Shown one piece after another: positions 8,604-43,377 of a stretch of 64,000 nucleotides of DNA; position 1 is the stretch's first letter, and each line of letters starts with the position of its first letter. Location of the stretch: contig NZ_JACJSP010000011.1 in assembly GCF_014698235.1 (NCBI RefSeq), positions 62,001 to 126,000 of the forward strand. Direction: 5' to 3'. Made by a program: the position numbers and the translations under genes. The notes beneath the pieces are model-generated. The model was not told where the DNA came from. It ran no database searches and saw nothing but the letters and a program-made list of their open reading frames with translations. The stretch comes from Limnothrix sp. FACHB-406 (lineage in GTDB: Bacteria > Cyanobacteriota > Cyanobacteriia > CACIAM-69d).

Positions 8604-10319
8604 ATGCTGGTTAAAGCCAAGCCCCAGCCCCTAGCCCCCCGTTGGCAAAAACCCCGATATTCCAGTTGGGAACGGCAGAAGGACGTGACGATCGCAATCG
8701 GGCGATTTGTCTCGGCCCTGTGGTGGGATCGTGTTCGCAAACAAAACAGCAGTGAGCAACGCAGTCGCCGGGCCCAGTGGCTAGCCCAAACCCTGGTGAA
8801 CTTGGGACCCGCGTTTATCAAAGTGGGACAGGCCCTGTCCACTCGCCCCGATCTGTTGCCGGGGGAATATATCACCGCCCTCAGCCGATTGCAGGATGCC
8901 GTGCCGCCCTTCAGCACGGATCTGGCGATCGCCACGATCGAAGCGGAGCTGGGCCAATCTGTTCAAGAACTCTTTCTGGAATTTGAACCGGAGCCGATCG
9001 CGGCGGCCAGTTTGGGGCAAGTTCACCGGGCCGTGCTGCCTGGGGGCGATCGGGTCGTGGTCAAAGTTCAGCGCCCGGGTCTAGAGCCGCTGTTTGATCT
9101 GGATTTCAAAGTTCTACGGCGTTTAATTCACTGGAGCGAGCTGCTCTTTCCCTGGACTCAGCAATACGATTTGGAGTCCATTTATCAAGAATTTTTTCGG
9201 ATTCTTTATCAAGAAATTGACTACGTTCACGAGGCCCACAACGCCGATCACTTTCGCCAAAACTTTCAGGAATTTCAAAACGTCCGAGTTCCCAAAATCC
9301 ATTGGCCCTACACCACTTCCCGTGTGTTGGTGATGGAATATCTGCCGGGAATTAAGGTGGATGACTGCGAGGCGCTGGTGTCCTGTGGCATTGACACCAA
9401 AAAGCTGAATCAGTTGGGCGTTTGTTGCTACTTAAAACAGCTTTTGCAAGATGGTTTCTTTCAGGCAGATCCTCACCCGGGAAACCTGGCAGTGACCCAA
9501 GATGGATCGCTGATTTTCTATGACTTTGGCATGTTTGTGGAAGTGAAATCCCTGGCCAAAGAACAGATGCTGCAAACCCTGTTTGCGGTTCTGAAAAAAG
9601 ATAGTGAATCAGTGTTGGAATCCCTAATTTCCATGGGATTAATTGAGCCGGTTTCGGATATGCGACCGGTGCGGAAACTGCTGCAATTTACCCTGGAACG
9701 GTTTGCGGAGCGGCCGGTGGATGTGAATGCATTCACGGAAATGCGCCGGGAAATTGCCACTTTGTTTGAGCAGCAACCGTTCCGACTGCCGGCCCAAATG
9801 ACTTACATTTTGAAGTCGATTACAACGCTGGATGGCATTGCGCGGCGACTGGATCCGGAATATAACCTGATTGCGCTGGCCAAACCCTTTGTGAAGCAGT
9901 TTGCGGGCATTGATCCCAATCGATCGCTCGCGGAAGGGCCAGGAGCCAACAAAACCCAAAAATGGCTGGGCTTGGCTAAGTTGGCTCTGGATACGGTGCA
10001 AGCGCAACTGAGCAAGCCGAATCCAACGGTGCTGGCAATTCAGCGGCTGGAGCAACGAATTGAACGGGGTGAGCTGGAGCTGCGGGTGCGATCGACGGAA
10101 ACCGATCGGGCCCTGAAACGCCTGAACCTGTCGATCGAATGTTTGATGTACACCTGCTTGGCGGGCTGTTTGTTAATTAGCGGGGCGGTTTTGGTGACGG
10201 GGCCCTTGGCCCACTGGGCGGCCTTTGTGTTTGCGGGGTCGGGAGTGGCGGTGGTGTTGCTGGTGCGGGCGTTGGTGCGGCTGTCGGTGCGCAAGCGGCT
10301 CGATCGATTCATGGAGTAG
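8604..10319 (+). CDS. AarF/ABC1/UbiB family atypical kinase
   Basis: A 571-residue member of the UbiB (ABC1K) family, which in cyanobacteria and plastids supports prenylquinone metabolism and membrane homeostasis. Hallmarks are the KxGQ motif (K73-V-G-Q76 in [16 protein letters not shown]), the alanine-rich loop replacing the normal Gly-rich loop ([11 protein letters not shown]), the VVKVQRPG lysine strand, the QADPHPGN catalytic loop and IFYDFGM as the DFG equivalent. Two C-terminal transmembrane helices anchor it. The frame extends upstream to a TTG at 8526, but the ATG at 8604 gives the family-like N-terminus. ruvC starts two bases after its stop, so the two are probably co-transcribed. 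Confidence 0.9.
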
Positions 10320-10321
10320 CT

Positions 10322-10885
10322 ATGGCCGATCGGGAACGGATTCTGGGCCTTGATCCGGGGCTAGCCATTTTAGGATTTGGGGCAATTAGTGTTCCCGCCG
10401 TTGGGGATCCGGTTTTTGGGAGTGATGGTTCGTTGGGTTGGCGATCGAGCGACCCGGTGGCGATCGACCCGGTGGCGATCGAATTGATCGACTTTGGCAT
10501 CATTGCCACCCCTGCCGGCCAGCCCATTGGCGATCGGTTGGTGACCCTTCACGACGATTTGCACGCGGTCATTGACCAAATTGAGCCGGATCGGGTGGCG
10601 ATCGAAAAACTCTTTTTTTATCGGATGGGCAACACGATCGCCGTAGCCCAAGCCCGTGGGGTGGTGTTGCTGGTTTTGGCTCAACGGCAACTTCCTTGGG
10701 TAGAATTCACACCGGCTCAAATTAAGCAAGCCCTCACCGGCTACGGCAACGCCAAGAAGCCCGAAGTGCAAGCCGCCGTGGCCCGGGAACTGAATTTGAC
10801 CACCTTGCCCAAGCCGGACGATGCGGCCGATGCGTTGGCCGTGGCGATCGCCGCTTGGGGGGCGGAGGCTGCCAATCGCGGCTAG
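10322..10885 (+). CDS. ruvC: Holliday junction endonuclease RuvC with an internal insertion
   Basis: Resolves Holliday junctions together with RuvAB. The acidic catalytic residues are visible: D11 in ILGLDPG, E95 in RVAIEKLFF and the D166-D-A-A-D170 cluster near the C-terminus. Compared with the usual family pattern, where the first strand is quickly followed by VIDFGVIETPAG, there are about 25-30 extra residues at roughly 24-52. Part of this is encoded by a perfect 15-bp tandem duplication (10451-10480) giving DPVAI twice. The insertion lies in a loop between the first two strands, so activity is likely preserved. The start lies two bases after the AarF-like stop. Confidence 0.93.
10451..10480. 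repeat. 15-bp tandem duplication inside ruvC
   Basis: GACCCGGTGGCGATC occurs twice in a row (10451-10465 and 10466-10480), in frame, duplicating five residues in the extra loop of RuvC. It includes a GCGATC half HIP1 site. Confidence 0.9.
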
Positions 10886-36632: not shown

Positions 36633-37439
36633 CTACCCCACACTGAGGCGCTGGAGCATGACCGATCGCGCCCGATCGGCCAGAGAATCGTCCAGGCGGT
36701 TCAATGCGCAGGATTCCCCCGTGCGTCGGGCGATCGCCGTTTGGATCATCCAATCAGCCAAAAAGGGATTTTTCGGCAACAGGGGCCCATGGGAATAGGT
36801 GGCGATCGCGTTGCAGTGAAATGCGCCTTCGGTTTGGTCTTCGCCGTTATTGCCCAAGCCGCGCACCACCCGGGCCAGCGGCTCCACTGATCCCAGCTTG
36901 GTGCGGCCCCCGTGGTTTTCAAAACCGATCAGGTAAGGCACATCCCCCAACATCAGCCGCAACTCCCGCGCCAGCCGTTCGGCGGTCACCTCCAGCACCA
37001 GATTGCCGATGCAGCGGGGCGCGTCGGGGCCCGGATGCACAGTCACCAAATCCAACACGCCCAGCCCTTGGATGCGCTGACCTAAACCGGGTTCGTAATA
37101 ATGGCCGAGCAACTGCGGTGCGCCACAGGTGAACACGCCGGGCACGCCGGCCTCGATCGCCCCTTTCAGGGCTGCGGCCTTGGCCCCTTGCAGATCTCGC
37201 ATCACGATTTCCTGTTGGCGATCCTGTGCGCCGCCGCCCACGATCAAGTCCACCTGGGTGAACTGGCTGGGGTCTGTGTCTCGATCGAGCGCTTGAATTC
37301 GCACCGGGATGCCGCGCCATTCACAGCGCCGCTGCAAACAGGTCACATTCCCCCGATCGCCATAGGTGCTCATTAGCTTGGGATAGAGCCAGCCAATCAC
37401 CAGGGGTTCAGAGAGGGTGGGCAAGGCGGAAAGACTCAC
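36633..37439 (-). CDS. gatD: Lipid II isoglutaminyl synthase, glutaminase subunit GatD
   Basis: Class I (CobB/CobQ-like) glutamine amidotransferase that supplies ammonia to MurT, which amidates the second-position glutamate of lipid II. The 268-residue product starts at a GTG (MSLSALPTLSEPLVIGWLYP). Hallmarks are LMSTYGDRGNV, LIVGGGAQDRQQ, the nucleophile in GVFTCGAPQLLGHYY and the histidine in IGFENHGGRTKLG. The open frame runs further upstream to 37901, but this overlaps the preceding gene. It is separated from murT by two glycosyltransferase-like genes, all on the minus strand. Confidence 0.9.
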   Translation of the reverse strand: MSLSALPTLSEPLVIGWLYPKLMSTYGDRGNVTCLQRRCEWRGIPVRIQALDRDTDPSQFTQVDLIVGGGAQDRQQEIVMRDLQGAKAAALKGAIEAGVPGVFTCGAPQLLGHYYEPGLGQRIQGLGVLDLVTVHPGPDAPRCIGNLVLEVTAERLARELRLMLGDVPYLIGFENHGGRTKLGSVEPLARVVRGLGNNGEDQTEGAFHCNAIATYSHGPLLPKNPFLADWMIQTAIARRTGESCALNRLDDSLADRARSVMLQRLSVG

Positions 37440-37482
37440 GGGCAGAAAACCTGGGCAAGGTTGCGGAAGAATCGGAGCCAGT

Positions 37483-39126
37483 CTATCGCGATTGGCGAGA
37501 TGCTGGGTTCGATCGAAACGGTTCAGCGCCTGATCGCACCCAACCCTCCAGCGCCGATCGCACCCGATCGAGGGGTTCCGCCCAACTGCCGGGCCGCGAC
37601 TGCCGAAACAGGCGCATGGTGGGATACCAGGGCGTATCGGGGCGATCGCGTAACCAGCGCCAATCGGCCGCATAGGGCAGCAGCGTCCAAACCGGTTTAC
37701 CCATGGCTCCGGCCAGGTGGCAAATGGCCGTATCAACCGTGACGAGCAAATCGATTTGCGCCAGATCGGCCGCCGTGTCGGCAAAATCCTTGATTTGGGG
37801 CGCGAGGTCAACAATTCCCTGGGCCGCCAGACGCTCGGCTTCGGCCTCGGAGCGATCGACCTGGAAGCTGTAGAGCTGGACACCGGGACATTGCAGGGCA
37901 ATCGCCAAAGGATCCAGTGCCATACACTTGCGGGCCGCGTCTTTCATGTGCGGGCCGCTTTGCCACACAATCCCCACCGCCAAGGCTTGGGAGGTTTGGC
38001 GCGGGAGCGGGCACTGATTCGCCAACGGGGCGATCGGCCGCAGGTAAGGAATCGGGGCGGGAATTTGCTCAACGGTGGTTCTCGCCAACCGAGGCAAGCT
38101 CAACAGCGACACATGGGCACGGTAAGGAATGCGGCAATCATCACCCGCGAAGACCTGATCAACCCCGGCCACCGTTTCCATGAGCCGCACCAGCGATCGG
38201 GGACACCAAAGCACCACCCGATCGCACCGTTGCCGGGCCCAAGCCAGATAGCGGCTAAATTGCAGCGTATCCCCCAAGCCCTGTTCCGTCAGCACCAGCA
38301 ACGTGCCCTTTAAGGGCTGCCCATCCCACTCGGGGCCCGCCGCTTGCACCCAAGGATTTTGATCCGAATACCGCCGCCATTCGTAGGCCCGCCAACCCTC
38401 ATCCCATCGCCCTAGGGAGAGTAAGCAAAGGGCATGGTTGAGTCGCAGGTGCGGATCTTCCGGCAGATGCATCAGGGCCTGTTCTGTGATGGCCAAGGCT
38501 TCTTCAAAACGGTTGTCGTGAGCGAGGAGTTGCCCCAGTTGAGCGGCAGCATTGCCCAATTCGGGATCACAGGCGAGGGCTTGCCGAAAGCATTGTTCTG
38601 CCTGCCTAGGATCAGTGTCATTCCAGGCCAGTCCTTGCCAAAAGGCGATCGCGGCCTGTTGTTTGGGAGCCAGTTGCTGAATGGTTTTCGGGAGTGGGTG
38701 TTGGCGTAACCAGGCGAGCCAAGGTTCTAGGCCTGCTTGCTCTGTCCAAACTTCTCCAAGGGTGGGATAGGTTTCAGGGAGTTCCGGATCCTGGGCGAGG
38801 GCCGTTTGCAACGATCGCAGGGCCGTTTCCCGATCGCCCCGATCGAGCGCCAGCAGTCCGGCGTAGTAATGGGCGATTCCCAGTTGTGGATCCAGGTGCA
38901 AAGCCAAGTCCAGGGCCCGCTCCGCTGGTTGAGTGGCTTGGGTGGCTCGGTAGGTGGCGCAAAGGTTCACGTACAGACCCGCCCAATGGGGATCCTGCTG
39001 AATGCCTTGCTGGTAGTGATGACGGGCAGTTGACCATTGCTCAGCCCCTTGGGCCGCCAAGCCGGCCTGAAGCTGGGCGATCGCCTCGGGAGAATGGGCC
39101 AAAAGATGGCTGTGCGAGGATTGCAT
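37483..39126 (-). CDS. TPR protein with GT9-like glycosyltransferase domain (copy B)
   Basis: About 547 residues. The N-terminal part (about 1-250) is made of TPR-like helical repeats (ARHHYQQGIQQDPHWAGLYVNL...). The C-terminal part is a GT-B domain like ADP-heptose/GT9 glycosyltransferases, with TEQGLGDTLQFSRYL and the sugar-nucleotide site LVTVDTAICHLAGAMGKPVW. It is closely similar to the gene directly upstream, so they are tandem paralogues. The ATG at 39126 was chosen over a TTG at 39183. It may glycosylate a protein or envelope polymer; the acceptor is unknown. Confidence 0.82.
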   Translation of the reverse strand: MQSSHSHLLAHSPEAIAQLQAGLAAQGAEQWSTARHHYQQGIQQDPHWAGLYVNLCATYRATQATQPAERALDLALHLDPQLGIAHYYAGLLALDRGDRETALRSLQTALAQDPELPETYPTLGEVWTEQAGLEPWLAWLRQHPLPKTIQQLAPKQQAAIAFWQGLAWNDTDPRQAEQCFRQALACDPELGNAAAQLGQLLAHDNRFEEALAITEQALMHLPEDPHLRLNHALCLLSLGRWDEGWRAYEWRRYSDQNPWVQAAGPEWDGQPLKGTLLVLTEQGLGDTLQFSRYLAWARQRCDRVVLWCPRSLVRLMETVAGVDQVFAGDDCRIPYRAHVSLLSLPRLARTTVEQIPAPIPYLRPIAPLANQCPLPRQTSQALAVGIVWQSGPHMKDAARKCMALDPLAIALQCPGVQLYSFQVDRSEAEAERLAAQGIVDLAPQIKDFADTAADLAQIDLLVTVDTAICHLAGAMGKPVWTLLPYAADWRWLRDRPDTPWYPTMRLFRQSRPGSWAEPLDRVRSALEGWVRSGAEPFRSNPASRQSR

Positions 39127-39186
39127 GGTTGCCAAGAGTGAGAGCTTCCCAGATGCGGAGTCTCCAAAATTCAGAGTCTCCAAGCG

Positions 39187-40794
39187 TTAGAACTGTTCGG
39201 CCAGCAGGGCCGATCGCACCTGCTGTAAGGGTTCCGACCAGTCACCAGGCTCGGTCTGCCGAAAGAGCCGCATGGTGGGATACCAAGGTGTATCGGGGCG
39301 ATCGAGCAGCCAGCGCCAATCGGCCGCAAAACAGAGCAACGTCCAAACCGGTTTGCCCATCGCTCCGGCCAAATGACAGATGGCCGTGTCCACCGTGATC
39401 AGCAGGTCGAGCTGGGCCAAATAGGCGGCCGTGTCGGCAAAGTCCTTGATCTGCGGAGCCAAGTCAATGATTCCAAATTGAGCCAGGTGGGCCACATCCG
39501 CATCGGAGCGATCGACCTGCAAGCTGTAGAGCTGCACACCGGGCAAATTGAGGGCCGCCGCTAACTCCGGGAGACTGCTGGATTTTTGGCGGTGGACGGC
39601 TTCTAGGCGATCGCCTGATCGAAATCCACTGGCCCAAACAATCCCGACCCGGCGTTGATCCGGTTTCGACACCGGTTTCGGCAGTGGGAGCGGCGCGATC
39701 GCCTCGGTGGCAGTGGGAAACAGGTAAGGAATCGGAGCCGGGACGCGATCGACCGTGGTTTGGGTCAAGCGGGGCAGACTGGACAGGGGTAAATGGGTGT
39801 TGAAATGGAGGGTTTCGCAAACCCCATCGGTGACATATCCCGCCCCTGGAGCCGATCGCATCACCCGCACCAGCGCTTTCGGGCACAGCAGAATCACCGT
39901 TTGGCAGCGATCGGCAACCCACTGAAGGTAGCGGGCCCATTGCAGTGAGTCCCCAAAACCTTGGTCAGCCCAAATCAGAATCGTGCGATCGGGAATTGGG
40001 GTTCCGTCCCATTTCTGACCGGGCAAGTCCTGCTTGGTCATTTGTCCCGATCGCCACTGCCACTCATTTTCCAAAAACCCCTCCGCCCAGCGCCCCAGGG
40101 TGAGCAAACAGAGGGCCCGGTTGTGGCGCAACGTGCCATGATCCGGCCAGCGAGCACAGGCGGCATCCAAAACGGCTAGTGCCTCCGTTAAGCGGCGTTG
40201 TTCCGCCAGGATCAGGCTGAGTTGAATGTGGGGCGGTTGGTAGGTCACCTCATCGGCGATCGCCTGTTGCAACAAAGTTTCTGCCGTGGCCAAATCTCCA
40301 TCAAAGTAATGTTTGAGTCCTTGCCAATAGCCGATCGCCGCGCGATCGAAGGAGGGTAAATTGCGCCAAGTATCAGGCAGGGGGCGAGATCGCACCCAAT
40401 CCATCAACTCGGGAAACTGATCCCGATTGTTTAACCGATGGGCAGCGGCTACGTAGAGGGCTGCGGACTCAGGAATTTGATCCAAAAGATGGTGGCAGGC
40501 TTGAATCGCCTGGGTTCGATCGGCCCAGTCCAACAAGGCTAACCAATTGCGCACCCCGATGGCGCTGTGCGGATCCAGACGCAGCGCTTGGGCGCAGGCC
40601 TGGCGAGCGGCGGCCATCTTGCCCAATCCCTTCAGGGCCGCCGCCAGGTTGATATAAATACCGGGAATTGCTGGATCCAACCGCAGGGCCGCCCGATAGC
40701 CTGCCAGGGCGATCGACCAGTCTGCTGCCGCCAGGGCTTGGTTCGCTTGTTGGGCCAGGGCGATCGCCTGATCTTGGACGCTGCCTTTCACCAC
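39187..40794 (-). CDS. TPR protein with GT9-like glycosyltransferase domain (copy A)
   Basis: A 535-residue paralogue of the downstream gene with the same plan: TPR-like repeats (about 1-260), then a GT-B domain with ADQGFGDSLQWARYL and LITVDTAICHLAGAMGKPVW, and the shared ending DRPDTPWYPTMRLFRQ. The start is one of two adjacent GTG codons (40794 or 40791) and abuts a 15-bp tandem repeat array. The stop lies 61 bases before the ATG of copy B, so the pair is probably co-transcribed with murT and gatD. Confidence 0.82.
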   Translation of the reverse strand: MVKGSVQDQAIALAQQANQALAAADWSIALAGYRAALRLDPAIPGIYINLAAALKGLGKMAAARQACAQALRLDPHSAIGVRNWLALLDWADRTQAIQACHHLLDQIPESAALYVAAAHRLNNRDQFPELMDWVRSRPLPDTWRNLPSFDRAAIGYWQGLKHYFDGDLATAETLLQQAIADEVTYQPPHIQLSLILAEQRRLTEALAVLDAACARWPDHGTLRHNRALCLLTLGRWAEGFLENEWQWRSGQMTKQDLPGQKWDGTPIPDRTILIWADQGFGDSLQWARYLQWVADRCQTVILLCPKALVRVMRSAPGAGYVTDGVCETLHFNTHLPLSSLPRLTQTTVDRVPAPIPYLFPTATEAIAPLPLPKPVSKPDQRRVGIVWASGFRSGDRLEAVHRQKSSSLPELAAALNLPGVQLYSLQVDRSDADVAHLAQFGIIDLAPQIKDFADTAAYLAQLDLLITVDTAICHLAGAMGKPVWTLLCFAADWRWLLDRPDTPWYPTMRLFRQTEPGDWSEPLQQVRSALLAEQF

Positions 40795-40853
40795 TGTGGT
40801 CTCCTGATCTGTGGTCTCCTGATCTGTGGTCTCCTGATCTGTGATCTCCCGAT
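40794..40853. repeat. 15-bp tandem repeat, four units
   Basis: CTGTGGTCTCCTGAT occurs three times exactly and once with two changes (40794-40853), directly upstream of the copy A start codon. Its copy number would alter the distance from any promoter or ribosome-binding site. Confidence 0.9.
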
Positions 40854-40961
40854 CTGTGGCGCAATGGATGGCGCGGTCTGTAGCGCGATTTGTGTTGAAG
40901 CGAAAATTCCTAAGCTAATGAAGTTCCTCAAGACTTTCTCAAGACTTAACTTTCTCAAGAC

Positions 40962-42323
40962 TTAAAGAATGCCGCGACCCGTGAGAATTTCTCGAACTTC
41001 CAGCATGGCGGAATAGGTGGGCAGAACGTAGAGGGTTTCGCCGTCGGGCAGTCGATCGAGGGCGTTTTGGATCGCCGCCTTGAGGTTGGTTTCCACCGAC
41101 AGGGTGGCGGGTCCAGCAGGTTGATCGGGATCGCTGTAGGCCAACCGCAGGGCCATGTCATAGGCTCGATCGCCACTGACCACCAGCGTGGCCCCCGTCG
41201 CCACCAGCCCTTCAGTGTCCGCATCCCAAATCCAAGACACATCGGTTCCGTCCGGTGTGCGATCGTTCAGCACCAGCAACACCGTGGGCGGAAAGGGGCG
41301 ATCGCGTGTCAGTTCCACCACCGTTCGTAGGGTTTCGTTGGTTCCCACCGGGTTTTTGGAGAGCAAAATTTGCACCAATTTTCCCTGCACCGTCAGGGAT
41401 TCCGCCCGGCCAAAAGCCGCTTGGAAATTGCGAATGGCCGCTTGAATGGGTGCTTCGCCAATGCCCAGGGCTTGGGCGGTGGTGGCGGCGGCCATGGCGT
41501 TGTATTGGTTATAGATGCCCACCAATAATTGCGGCCAGTCGCGGCTATTCAGCAACGGGCGCGATCGCGCAAAACCGCAACTGGGGCAGTGATAATCGCC
41601 CAAATGGGATAGATAAACGCCCTCATAGGTCAAAGAGTGACCACAGTTGGGGCAATAGATTGAATCAACGGCGTGGGGAATTTCCGGTAAAAAGCGTTCC
41701 GGTTCGCTGAGGCCAAAGTAGCGAACTCGGGCTAGATCTTCCCATTGGGCTTCCAGTTGTTGTCCAAAGTGGCAAAGGGTGGGGTCATCGGCGCTCAACA
41801 CGGCGATCGTGTGGGAGAGCGGGGCGATCGCCCGTTCCCAGCGGCGAGCAATCGTGTCCACCTCGCCGTAGCGATCGAGCTGGTCACGAAACAAATTCAT
41901 CGCCAACAAGATCCGCGGCCGAATTTGCGGTAGCACCTTGGGCAGGACATTTTCATCCACTTCCAAGATCGCAAAGTCCCGATCGAGCCGCCCCAGCCAA
42001 TTCGCATCCGCCAGCAAAGCCGCCGTCAGACCATTTTCCAGGTTGGCCCCTGTGGCGTTGTGGGTCACCCGATAGCCCTGGTTTTCTAAAATGCTTCGCA
42101 GCAGCAGGGCCGTGGTGGTTTTGCCGTTGGTTCCGGCCACCAAAATCGCGCCCTGTTTCACTTGAGCTGCCAACAGAGCCAAGGCATTGGGCTGAATCTT
42201 GCGAGCAATGCTGCCGGGCAACACACTCCCGGCCCCGCGCCGCAGCAACCGCACGGCTAGGGCGATCGCCCGGGCGGCCATTACTGCCGCTGCTAGTCGC
42301 AAATTGTCGATTGCGCCCGCCAT
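40962..42323 (-). CDS. murT: Lipid II isoglutaminyl synthase, ligase subunit MurT
   Basis: Mur-ligase-family ATPase that, with GatD, converts D-glutamate to D-isoglutamine in the lipid II stem peptide. The 453-residue protein has the P-loop AGTNGKTTTALLL, the VDENVLPKVLP segment, a four-cysteine zinc ribbon inserted in the central domain (YCPNCG ... YHCPSCG) that is specific to MurT, and the C-terminal DUF1727 region (LVLNDRTPDGTDVSWIWD). A hydrophobic N-terminal helix may tether it to the membrane. It heads a minus-strand run whose last gene is gatD. Confidence 0.92.
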   Translation of the reverse strand: MAGAIDNLRLAAAVMAARAIALAVRLLRRGAGSVLPGSIARKIQPNALALLAAQVKQGAILVAGTNGKTTTALLLRSILENQGYRVTHNATGANLENGLTAALLADANWLGRLDRDFAILEVDENVLPKVLPQIRPRILLAMNLFRDQLDRYGEVDTIARRWERAIAPLSHTIAVLSADDPTLCHFGQQLEAQWEDLARVRYFGLSEPERFLPEIPHAVDSIYCPNCGHSLTYEGVYLSHLGDYHCPSCGFARSRPLLNSRDWPQLLVGIYNQYNAMAAATTAQALGIGEAPIQAAIRNFQAAFGRAESLTVQGKLVQILLSKNPVGTNETLRTVVELTRDRPFPPTVLLVLNDRTPDGTDVSWIWDADTEGLVATGATLVVSGDRAYDMALRLAYSDPDQPAGPATLSVETNLKAAIQNALDRLPDGETLYVLPTYSAMLEVREILTGRGIL

Positions 42324-42454
42324 GAACCCCTGTCCGCAAAACCCCCGCTATCCTACCACCCGGCGGCTGGGCCCCCGCGCGGGAGACTGTGAACCTGAGA
42401 CGATGTTTGAAAAGCCACAATTGAGACACCACTTGCCCCAACGATCAATGCAAA

Positions 42455-42474
42455 CAAAGGTCTTAAGCCTCTTG
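42455..42474. repeat. Degenerate copy of the CAAGGGG palindrome family
   Basis: CAAAGGTCTTAAGCCTCTTG keeps the TCTTAAG centre and the flanking CAA/TTG but has lost some pairing. It overlaps the 3' end of the HEAT-GUN4 gene and continues into a CCCCCC tract. Confidence 0.5.
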
Positions 42475-43377
42475 CCCCCCAAGACTATTGGGGTTTGACC
42501 AGGGCTGCAAGATACTTTTCAAACAGTCCTTTAGGAAATCGTGACCAAAGAACGAATCTTGGCTCCAGGTGTAGTAGTAGCGACCAAACCCATAAAACCC
42601 CATTGTTGATTCGGTGTCGGGGCGATCGTACTCGGATTGAGACTCACCCCCACCGAGGGCAAAGGTACTGGGTAAGTGACCGATCGGGGCGCTGAGATCG
42701 TAGGGAATCTTAGTTCGCCGCTTAAAGTCGTAGTCCGGCACATGCCACCCATCATAGGTTTCGACTTGCCAGCCCACAGCATCCCCAAAGCAGTGACATA
42801 AATCCTGGCGGGAATAATTGAAAGGCTTACAGGTTTCTGCTGTGCAAGCATTCCATAATTGGGCTTGGATTGAAAACCCAAAGCGATCGCGACTGTAGAT
42901 CCGCCAGAGGCGATCAATCGCGACCAAACTACTCTGCGGAAAATTCTGAAGATCACTTTTTCGCAACCAGAGATTAGATCGATCGGCGATCGCCTTCATT
43001 AGGGCAATCGTTAAATCATCTGCCGCCTGCCATTGTTGCTTGGCCAGTAAGCTTTGCAACTCGTAATAGCGATCGCGATCGCTCAAGTCAGGTAATTGGA
43101 AATGCTGCCATAAGCCTTCCAATGCGATCGCTTCAGTGCAACCCAAGAGTTGCTCGATCGCCGCTTGTTGCACTAATGGATTTGGCGATTTCAAAGCACG
43201 AACCACTAAAGCAATTCCTTCTAGACCCCGCTGCATGGCAATGGTCACGGCGGAGAGTTGATCGGCTTCTGATCTACTGACAAAGCATTGCAATAGCTCT
43301 GGCAAGCCAAATAGGACGATCGCACTAGAAGCCTGGTAATTCGATTGATGCTCACTCAAAATATCACCCGCTTTCAT
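42463..43377 (-). CDS. HEAT-repeat/GUN4-domain protein
   Basis: About 304 residues. Residues about 15-95 are HEAT-like helical repeats; about 97-240 are a GUN4 domain, which in GUN4 proper binds protoporphyrin IX and Mg-protoporphyrin and stimulates Mg-chelatase. Matching segments are YYELQSLLAKQQWQAADDLT, WLRKSDLQNFPQSSLVAIDRLWRIYS and DRFGFSIQAQLW, then a GDAVGW motif. The C-terminal 60 residues (GFYGFGRYYY) are unusual. It is more likely a GUN4 paralogue than the main regulator. ATG at 43377 preferred over TTG at 43392. Confidence 0.82.
   Translation of the reverse strand: MKAGDILSEHQSNYQASSAIVLFGLPELLQCFVSRSEADQLSAVTIAMQRGLEGIALVVRALKSPNPLVQQAAIEQLLGCTEAIALEGLWQHFQLPDLSDRDRYYELQSLLAKQQWQAADDLTIALMKAIADRSNLWLRKSDLQNFPQSSLVAIDRLWRIYSRDRFGFSIQAQLWNACTAETCKPFNYSRQDLCHCFGDAVGWQVETYDGWHVPDYDFKRRTKIPYDLSAPIGHLPSTFALGGGESQSEYDRPDTESTMGFYGFGRYYYTWSQDSFFGHDFLKDCLKSILQPWSNPNSLGGQEA

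What the first reader, a model, noticed from the sequence alone, without database searches (positions are those of the whole stretch)
36633..42323. murT and gatD split by a tandem pair of TPR-GT9-like glycosyltransferases
MurT and GatD form one enzyme that amidates lipid II and are usually adjacent. Here two paralogous TPR/GT-B genes lie between them, all four on the minus strand with short gaps. This suggests that a glycosyltransferase pair was inserted into, or recruited to, a cell-wall-modification operon. It could modify a peptidoglycan-linked or membrane-associated acceptor.
Basis: partly seen in the sequence, partly recalled or inferred. Interest (0 to 1): 0.6.

Follow-up and report, generated by a model that had tools for sequence, protein, structure and literature searches.

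The report
Glycosyltransferase pair inside murT-gatD locus
In one small group of cyanobacteria, one or two sugar-transferase genes have slipped between the two genes of a cell-wall-modifying enzyme; cyanobacteria separate these two genes in many ways, so this looks like a local rearrangement rather than a new cell-wall pathway.

Summary
On the minus strand the window carries murT (42323-40962), TPR-GT9 gene A (40794-39187), TPR-GT9 gene B (39123-37483) and gatD (37439-36633). MurT and GatD signature residues are intact and all four genes are under purifying selection.

Three species of the genus share the arrangement: two have two GTs, one has a single GT orthologous to gene A. Sister genera have murT and gatD directly adjacent without a GT, or unlinked. 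The insertion is thus genus-specific, and A and B are tandem paralogs.

The premise "usually adjacent" fails in cyanobacteria. Of 59 genomes with this MurT/GatD lineage, only 13 have the genes within 300 bp; others carry unrelated inserts (DinB-like, toxin-like and other genes). TPR-GT9 proteins are near-ubiquitous in cyanobacteria, sit in varied neighbourhoods, and were not found linked to murT/gatD outside this genus.

The block may be partly co-transcribed: gaps are short and it survives rearrangement of its flanks. But gatD has a conserved promoter-like element of its own. A role of the GTs in peptidoglycan modification has no support beyond proximity. Most likely: lineage-specific insertion and duplication of a protein or glycan glycosyltransferase in a loosened murT-gatD locus.

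The parts
40962..42323 (-). murT: Mur ligase-like synthetase subunit of lipid II isoglutaminyl synthase (453 aa)
   Evidence: Pfam MurT_C 4.2e-29 and Mur_ligase_M; P-loop GTNGKTT at residue 64, cysteine tetrad C224/C227/C246/C249, K323-N324-P325, loop RDQ at 146; omega 0.03 between sister species
42332..42364 (-). 33-bp block upstream of murT, promoter-like (TAGGAT as candidate -10)
   Evidence: 31 of 33 bases identical between this genome and G002 while the surrounding spacer has diverged; 0 of 1000 shuffles as good. Promoter function is inferred.
39187..40794 (-). GT-A: TPR plus GT9-like glycosyltransferase (535 aa from GTG), ortholog of the single GT in G002
   Evidence: TPR and Glyco_transf_9; 75% identity to the G002 GT; omega 0.10
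40794..40859 (.). 15-bp x 4.4 tandem repeat at the start of GT-A (five-codon unit DQETT in the GT-A frame)
   Evidence: Tandem Repeats Finder score 118; G001 has one DQETT unit inside a longer ATG-started N-terminus
37483..39123 (-). GT-B: TPR plus GT9-like glycosyltransferase (546 aa from ATG; alternative TTG at 39183)
   Evidence: TPR and Glyco_transf_9; 47% identity to GT-A, sister clade; omega 0.15
37470..37493 (-). 24-bp block spanning the GT-B stop codon, upstream of gatD; candidate -10 TAGACT
   Evidence: AATCGCGATAGACTGGCTCCGATT, 22 of 24 identical in G002 although GT genes and spacer diverged; noncoding part alone p about 0.003. Promoter function is inferred.
36633..37439 (-). gatD: class I glutaminase subunit of lipid II isoglutaminyl synthase (268 aa, GTG start)
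   Evidence: GATase_3 9.7e-26; closest NCBIfam models are GatD, 1.4e-43 and 7.7e-41; C105, H217 and D28 invariant across cyanobacterial homologs

Best explanation
The locus is an ordinary murT-gatD pair into which the ancestor of this genus inserted one member of the large cyanobacterial TPR-GT9 glycosyltransferase family. That member duplicated in tandem (GT-A, GT-B); one of the three sampled species now has only the GT-A ortholog. MurT and GatD still form the enzyme that amidates the D-glutamate of lipid II; proteins made from separated genes can still meet. The GTs are cytosolic, TPR-guided GT-B-type transferases that most likely glycosylate a protein or another glycan unrelated to MurT/GatD. 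They probably read through from the murT promoter, while gatD also has its own promoter. Shown: gene order, homology, genus-restricted insertion, duplication, purifying selection, frequent murT-gatD separation across cyanobacteria. Inferred: transcription, enzymatic activities, lack of a functional link.
For: Genus distribution of the insert: G001 murT-GT-GT-gatD, G002 murT-GT-gatD, G003/G005 murT-gatD adjacent, G004 on different contigs, G040 adjacent. GT-A and GT-B sister; no full-length ortholog in 390 cyanobacterial genomes outside the genus, best 371 bits against 984-1078 within it. Of 82 cyanobacterial genomes with both genes, 34 adjacent, 10 with 0.3-6 kb inserts, 17 far apart on one contig, 21 on different contigs; excluding the divergent f13/f26 group, 13 of 59 adjacent. 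Other inserts are unrelated genes. TPR-GT9 proteins occur in 56 of 59 relatives against 8 of 59 for MurT. Omega for GTs 0.10-0.15 against 0.03 for murT and gatD.
Against: The insert persists in all three sampled species of the genus, and the block stays together although its neighbours in this genome lie on other contigs in G002. That is more conservation than a neutral passenger needs. Enzyme functions were not tested.
Confidence: 0.72

Rival explanations
1. One reading: the GT pair was recruited to the murT-gatD operon because it glycosylates a peptidoglycan-linked or lipid-linked acceptor in the same pathway, and co-expression is selected.
For: Retention of murT-GT(s)-gatD in three species while flanking genes moved; in G002 the GT starts 12 bp after murT and ends 43 bp before gatD; purifying selection on both GTs.
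Against: Unrelated genes occupy the same gap in other cyanobacteria. The GT family sits in varied neighbourhoods; a mur gene was beside it in only one of 27 surveyed loci. In the MurT-bearing genomes that also have a strong GT match outside the genus, the two lie on other contigs or more than 100 kb apart. Closest relatives have MurT/GatD without this GT clade. No signal peptide-like or membrane segment was evident in a hydropathy scan of the GTs.
Confidence: 0.13
2. Regulatory coupling only: murT-GT-GT is one transcript and gatD a second, partly independent one; the insertion was fixed because gatD already had or gained its own promoter, and the neighbours share expression without sharing a pathway.
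For: Conserved blocks upstream of murT and of gatD but none in the murT/GT-A gap. Standalone gatD genes elsewhere in cyanobacteria must have their own promoters.
Against: The simple sigma-70 scan found no more promoter-like sites than chance, and none at these blocks. The block upstream of gatD overlaps the GT-B stop codon, so part of its conservation may be coding.
Confidence: 0.12
3. Assembly or gene-calling artefact.
For: None found.
Against: Same order in G001 (about 96-99% protein identity) and the related order in G002 from separate assemblies; low omega.
Confidence: 0.01

Closest known systems
MurT-GatD lipid II isoglutaminyl synthase (murTgatD), e.g. Streptococcus pneumoniae (PMC6085368)
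   Same: Domain make-up, cysteine tetrad, K-N-P motif, GatD Cys/His/Asp triad equivalents. The paper already notes the operon in some cyanobacteria.
   Different: The genes are not adjacent here, and in cyanobacteria generally they often are not.
Cyanobacterial TPR-GT9 proteins (Pfam Glyco_transf_9 with TPR), single or in arrays of up to about 4000 aa
   Same: Architecture and C-terminal motif (DFADTA..D..I.VDTA..HLAGA.GKPVW...DWRW..DR.D.PWYPTMRLFRQ).
   Different: GT-A and GT-B form their own clade, restricted to this genus among the genomes sampled.
O-GlcNAc transferase / SPINDLY type TPR-GT-B enzymes (GT41)
   Same: N-terminal TPR superhelix followed by a GT domain; the TPR part matches OGT by sequence.
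   Different: The GT part matches Pfam GT9, not GT41, and no solved structure matched it by sequence.

Membership tests
MurT (lipid II isoglutaminyl synthase synthetase subunit) | Mur ligase middle domain plus MurT C-terminal domain | tested here: met
MurT (lipid II isoglutaminyl synthase synthetase subunit) | ATP-binding GTNGKTT, cysteine tetrad, K-N-P motif | tested here: met
   against PMC6085368
MurT (lipid II isoglutaminyl synthase synthetase subunit) | NCBIfam equivalog cut-off for MurT | tested here: not met
   231 bits against 800; the cut-offs appear set for narrower groups, so this lowers only the equivalog label
GatD glutaminase subunit | GATase_3 domain with Cys, His and Asp triad | tested here: met
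   (C105, H217, D28)
GatD glutaminase subunit | NCBIfam equivalog cut-off for GatD | tested here: not met
   149 bits against 450
MurT-GatD enzyme | Amidation of lipid II D-glutamate | not testable with these tools
   needs biochemistry or muropeptide analysis
TPR-GT9 glycosyltransferase family of cyanobacteria | TPR repeats followed by a Glyco_transf_9 domain | tested here: met
   over the curated cut-off for both
TPR-GT9 glycosyltransferase family of cyanobacteria | Glycosyltransferase activity | not testable with these tools
   donor and acceptor unknown
GT41 / OGT | GT41 catalytic domain | tested here: not met
   no GT41 domain reported by Pfam; only the TPR part matches OGT
murTgatD operon | adjacent, co-transcribed murT and gatD | tested here: not met
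   two genes intervene; co-transcription itself untested

The most novel reading that the evidence does not exclude
The GT-A/GT-B pair glycosylates a lipid-linked or peptidoglycan-linked acceptor, or MurT/GatD themselves, and so adds a sugar-based control or modification step to D-iGln amidation in this genus.
Probability: 0.06. Interest if true: 0.55.

Novelty: new variant of a known kind. Interest (0 to 1): 0.22.

Why it matters
It corrects an assumption used in annotation: in cyanobacteria murT and gatD are often not neighbours, so proximity to them is weak evidence of function. It also gives a small natural test case of how an enzyme's two subunit genes can be separated step by step: overlapping, adjacent, one insert, two inserts, unlinked, all within one family.

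Tried and rejected
Structure prediction of GT-A from the two window GTs gave a usable TPR part but a poor GT part (mean pLDDT 56.6), so no fold search was run. PDB sequence searches matched only the TPR part. A MurE-like gene beside a TPR-GT array in G010 looked like a link to peptidoglycan, but it was the only such case in 27 loci. Sigma-70 and terminator scans gave no excess over shuffles. One sequence in alignment A8 (L198:10681-11730) proved to be a RecN/SMC-like ATPase and was dropped from A9. Literature searches found no paper on TPR-GT9 proteins or D-iGln in cyanobacteria beyond a distribution remark in PMC6085368.

Full report
Observation. Pfam assigns MurT_C and Mur_ligase_M to the first, TPR plus Glyco_transf_9 to the two middle genes, and GATase_3 to the last. 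NCBIfam's nearest models for the outer genes are lipid II isoglutaminyl synthase MurT and GatD, though both score below those models' curated cut-offs. The residues expected from the S. pneumoniae structure paper (PMC6085368) are present: cysteine tetrad C224/C227/C246/C249 and K323-N324-P325 in MurT, and C105, H217 and D28 in GatD. The gatD start is GTG 37439, conserved in G002, so the true gatD is shorter than the ORF.

Evolution of the insert. The genome belongs to a cyanobacterial genus with two other held species. G001 has murT-GT-GT-gatD. G002 has murT-GT-gatD; its GT is 75% identical to GT-A and 47% to GT-B. In the same family, G003 has murT and gatD overlapping by about one base, and G005 also has them adjacent, both without a GT; G004 has them on different contigs at internal positions. 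G040, from another family, has them adjacent. A maximum-likelihood tree of GT domains puts GT-B beside GT-A plus the G002 GT (100/98) and apart from the other TPR-GTs of these genomes. On that topology the duplication came before the split from G002, which then lost GT-B. The G002 GT has a C-terminal tail ending KSR and a following block like those of GT-B, as expected if recombination between the similar 3' ends deleted GT-B. This is inference; accelerated evolution of GT-B could mimic it.

Selection. Between G000 and G001, omega is 0.027 (murT), 0.034 (gatD), 0.10 (GT-A) and 0.15 (GT-B). All four are functional genes; the GTs are less constrained.

Is separation unusual? No. In 390 cyanobacterial genomes, MurT was found in 85 and GatD in 87, both in 82. 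Of these 82, 34 have the genes within 300 bp, 10 have 0.3-6 kb between them on the same strand, 17 have them far apart on one contig and 21 on different contigs. Leaving out the divergent f13/f26 group, 13 of 59 are adjacent. Different contigs in draft assemblies do not always prove distance, but the 17 far cases do. Inserts in other cyanobacteria include a DinB-family gene, a 259-aa and a 133-aa protein without a Pfam match, and a MazF-like/BrnT-like cluster. None of the named or sampled loci outside the genus has a TPR-GT between the two genes.

What are the GTs? They are members of a family found in 56 of 59 relatives, with four or five strong members per genome in this family and multi-domain arrays of up to about 4000 aa elsewhere. 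Neighbours of 27 such loci are varied; a few have GT2 or methyltransferase genes nearby. One has a MurE-like gene. The proteins have no evident membrane segment in a hydropathy scan. A cytosolic protein or glycan glycosyltransferase with TPR-based acceptor recognition is the most economical reading, by analogy with other TPR-GT-B enzymes; donor and acceptor are unknown.

Operon or not? For co-transcription: short gaps, one strand, and in G002 the block is kept although the window's neighbours lie on other contigs and the 5.9 kb beyond gatD is unrelated to the window. Against a single simple operon: a 24-bp block upstream of gatD (22 of 24 identical to G002) and a 33-bp block upstream of murT (31 of 33) are conserved, while the murT/GT-A gap is not. 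Both contain a TANNNT hexamer. This suggests, but does not show, a separate gatD promoter. The generic promoter scan did not pick these sites.

Verdict. The finding is a genus-level variant of a known locus.

Noticed in passing
L049:9647-10429 (+) and L051:7491-8435 (-): In two sister genera an orthologous TPR protein with a hydrophobic N-terminus (37% identity) follows gatD directly; no such neighbour was found in other cyanobacteria, and no ortholog in this genus.
   Followed up: partly
window 40794-40859: A 15-bp repeat (4.4 copies), in frame as DQETT, sits at the start of GT-A; the sister species has one unit inside a longer N-terminus, so the start codon of GT-A here may differ.
   Followed up: partly
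window 42394-42537: This stretch (3' part of the GUN4-domain ORF and spacer before murT) has more than ten diverged copies in G002, perhaps a GUN4-domain gene family or a dispersed repeat.
   Followed up: no
L199:6483-18875: A MurE-like ligase gene lies directly upstream of a 3552-aa TPR-GT array in G010; not seen in 26 other loci.
   Followed up: partly
L102 gap 9314-10823: A MazF-like and a BrnT-like toxin gene lie between murT and gatD in Aliterella atlantica.
   Followed up: no
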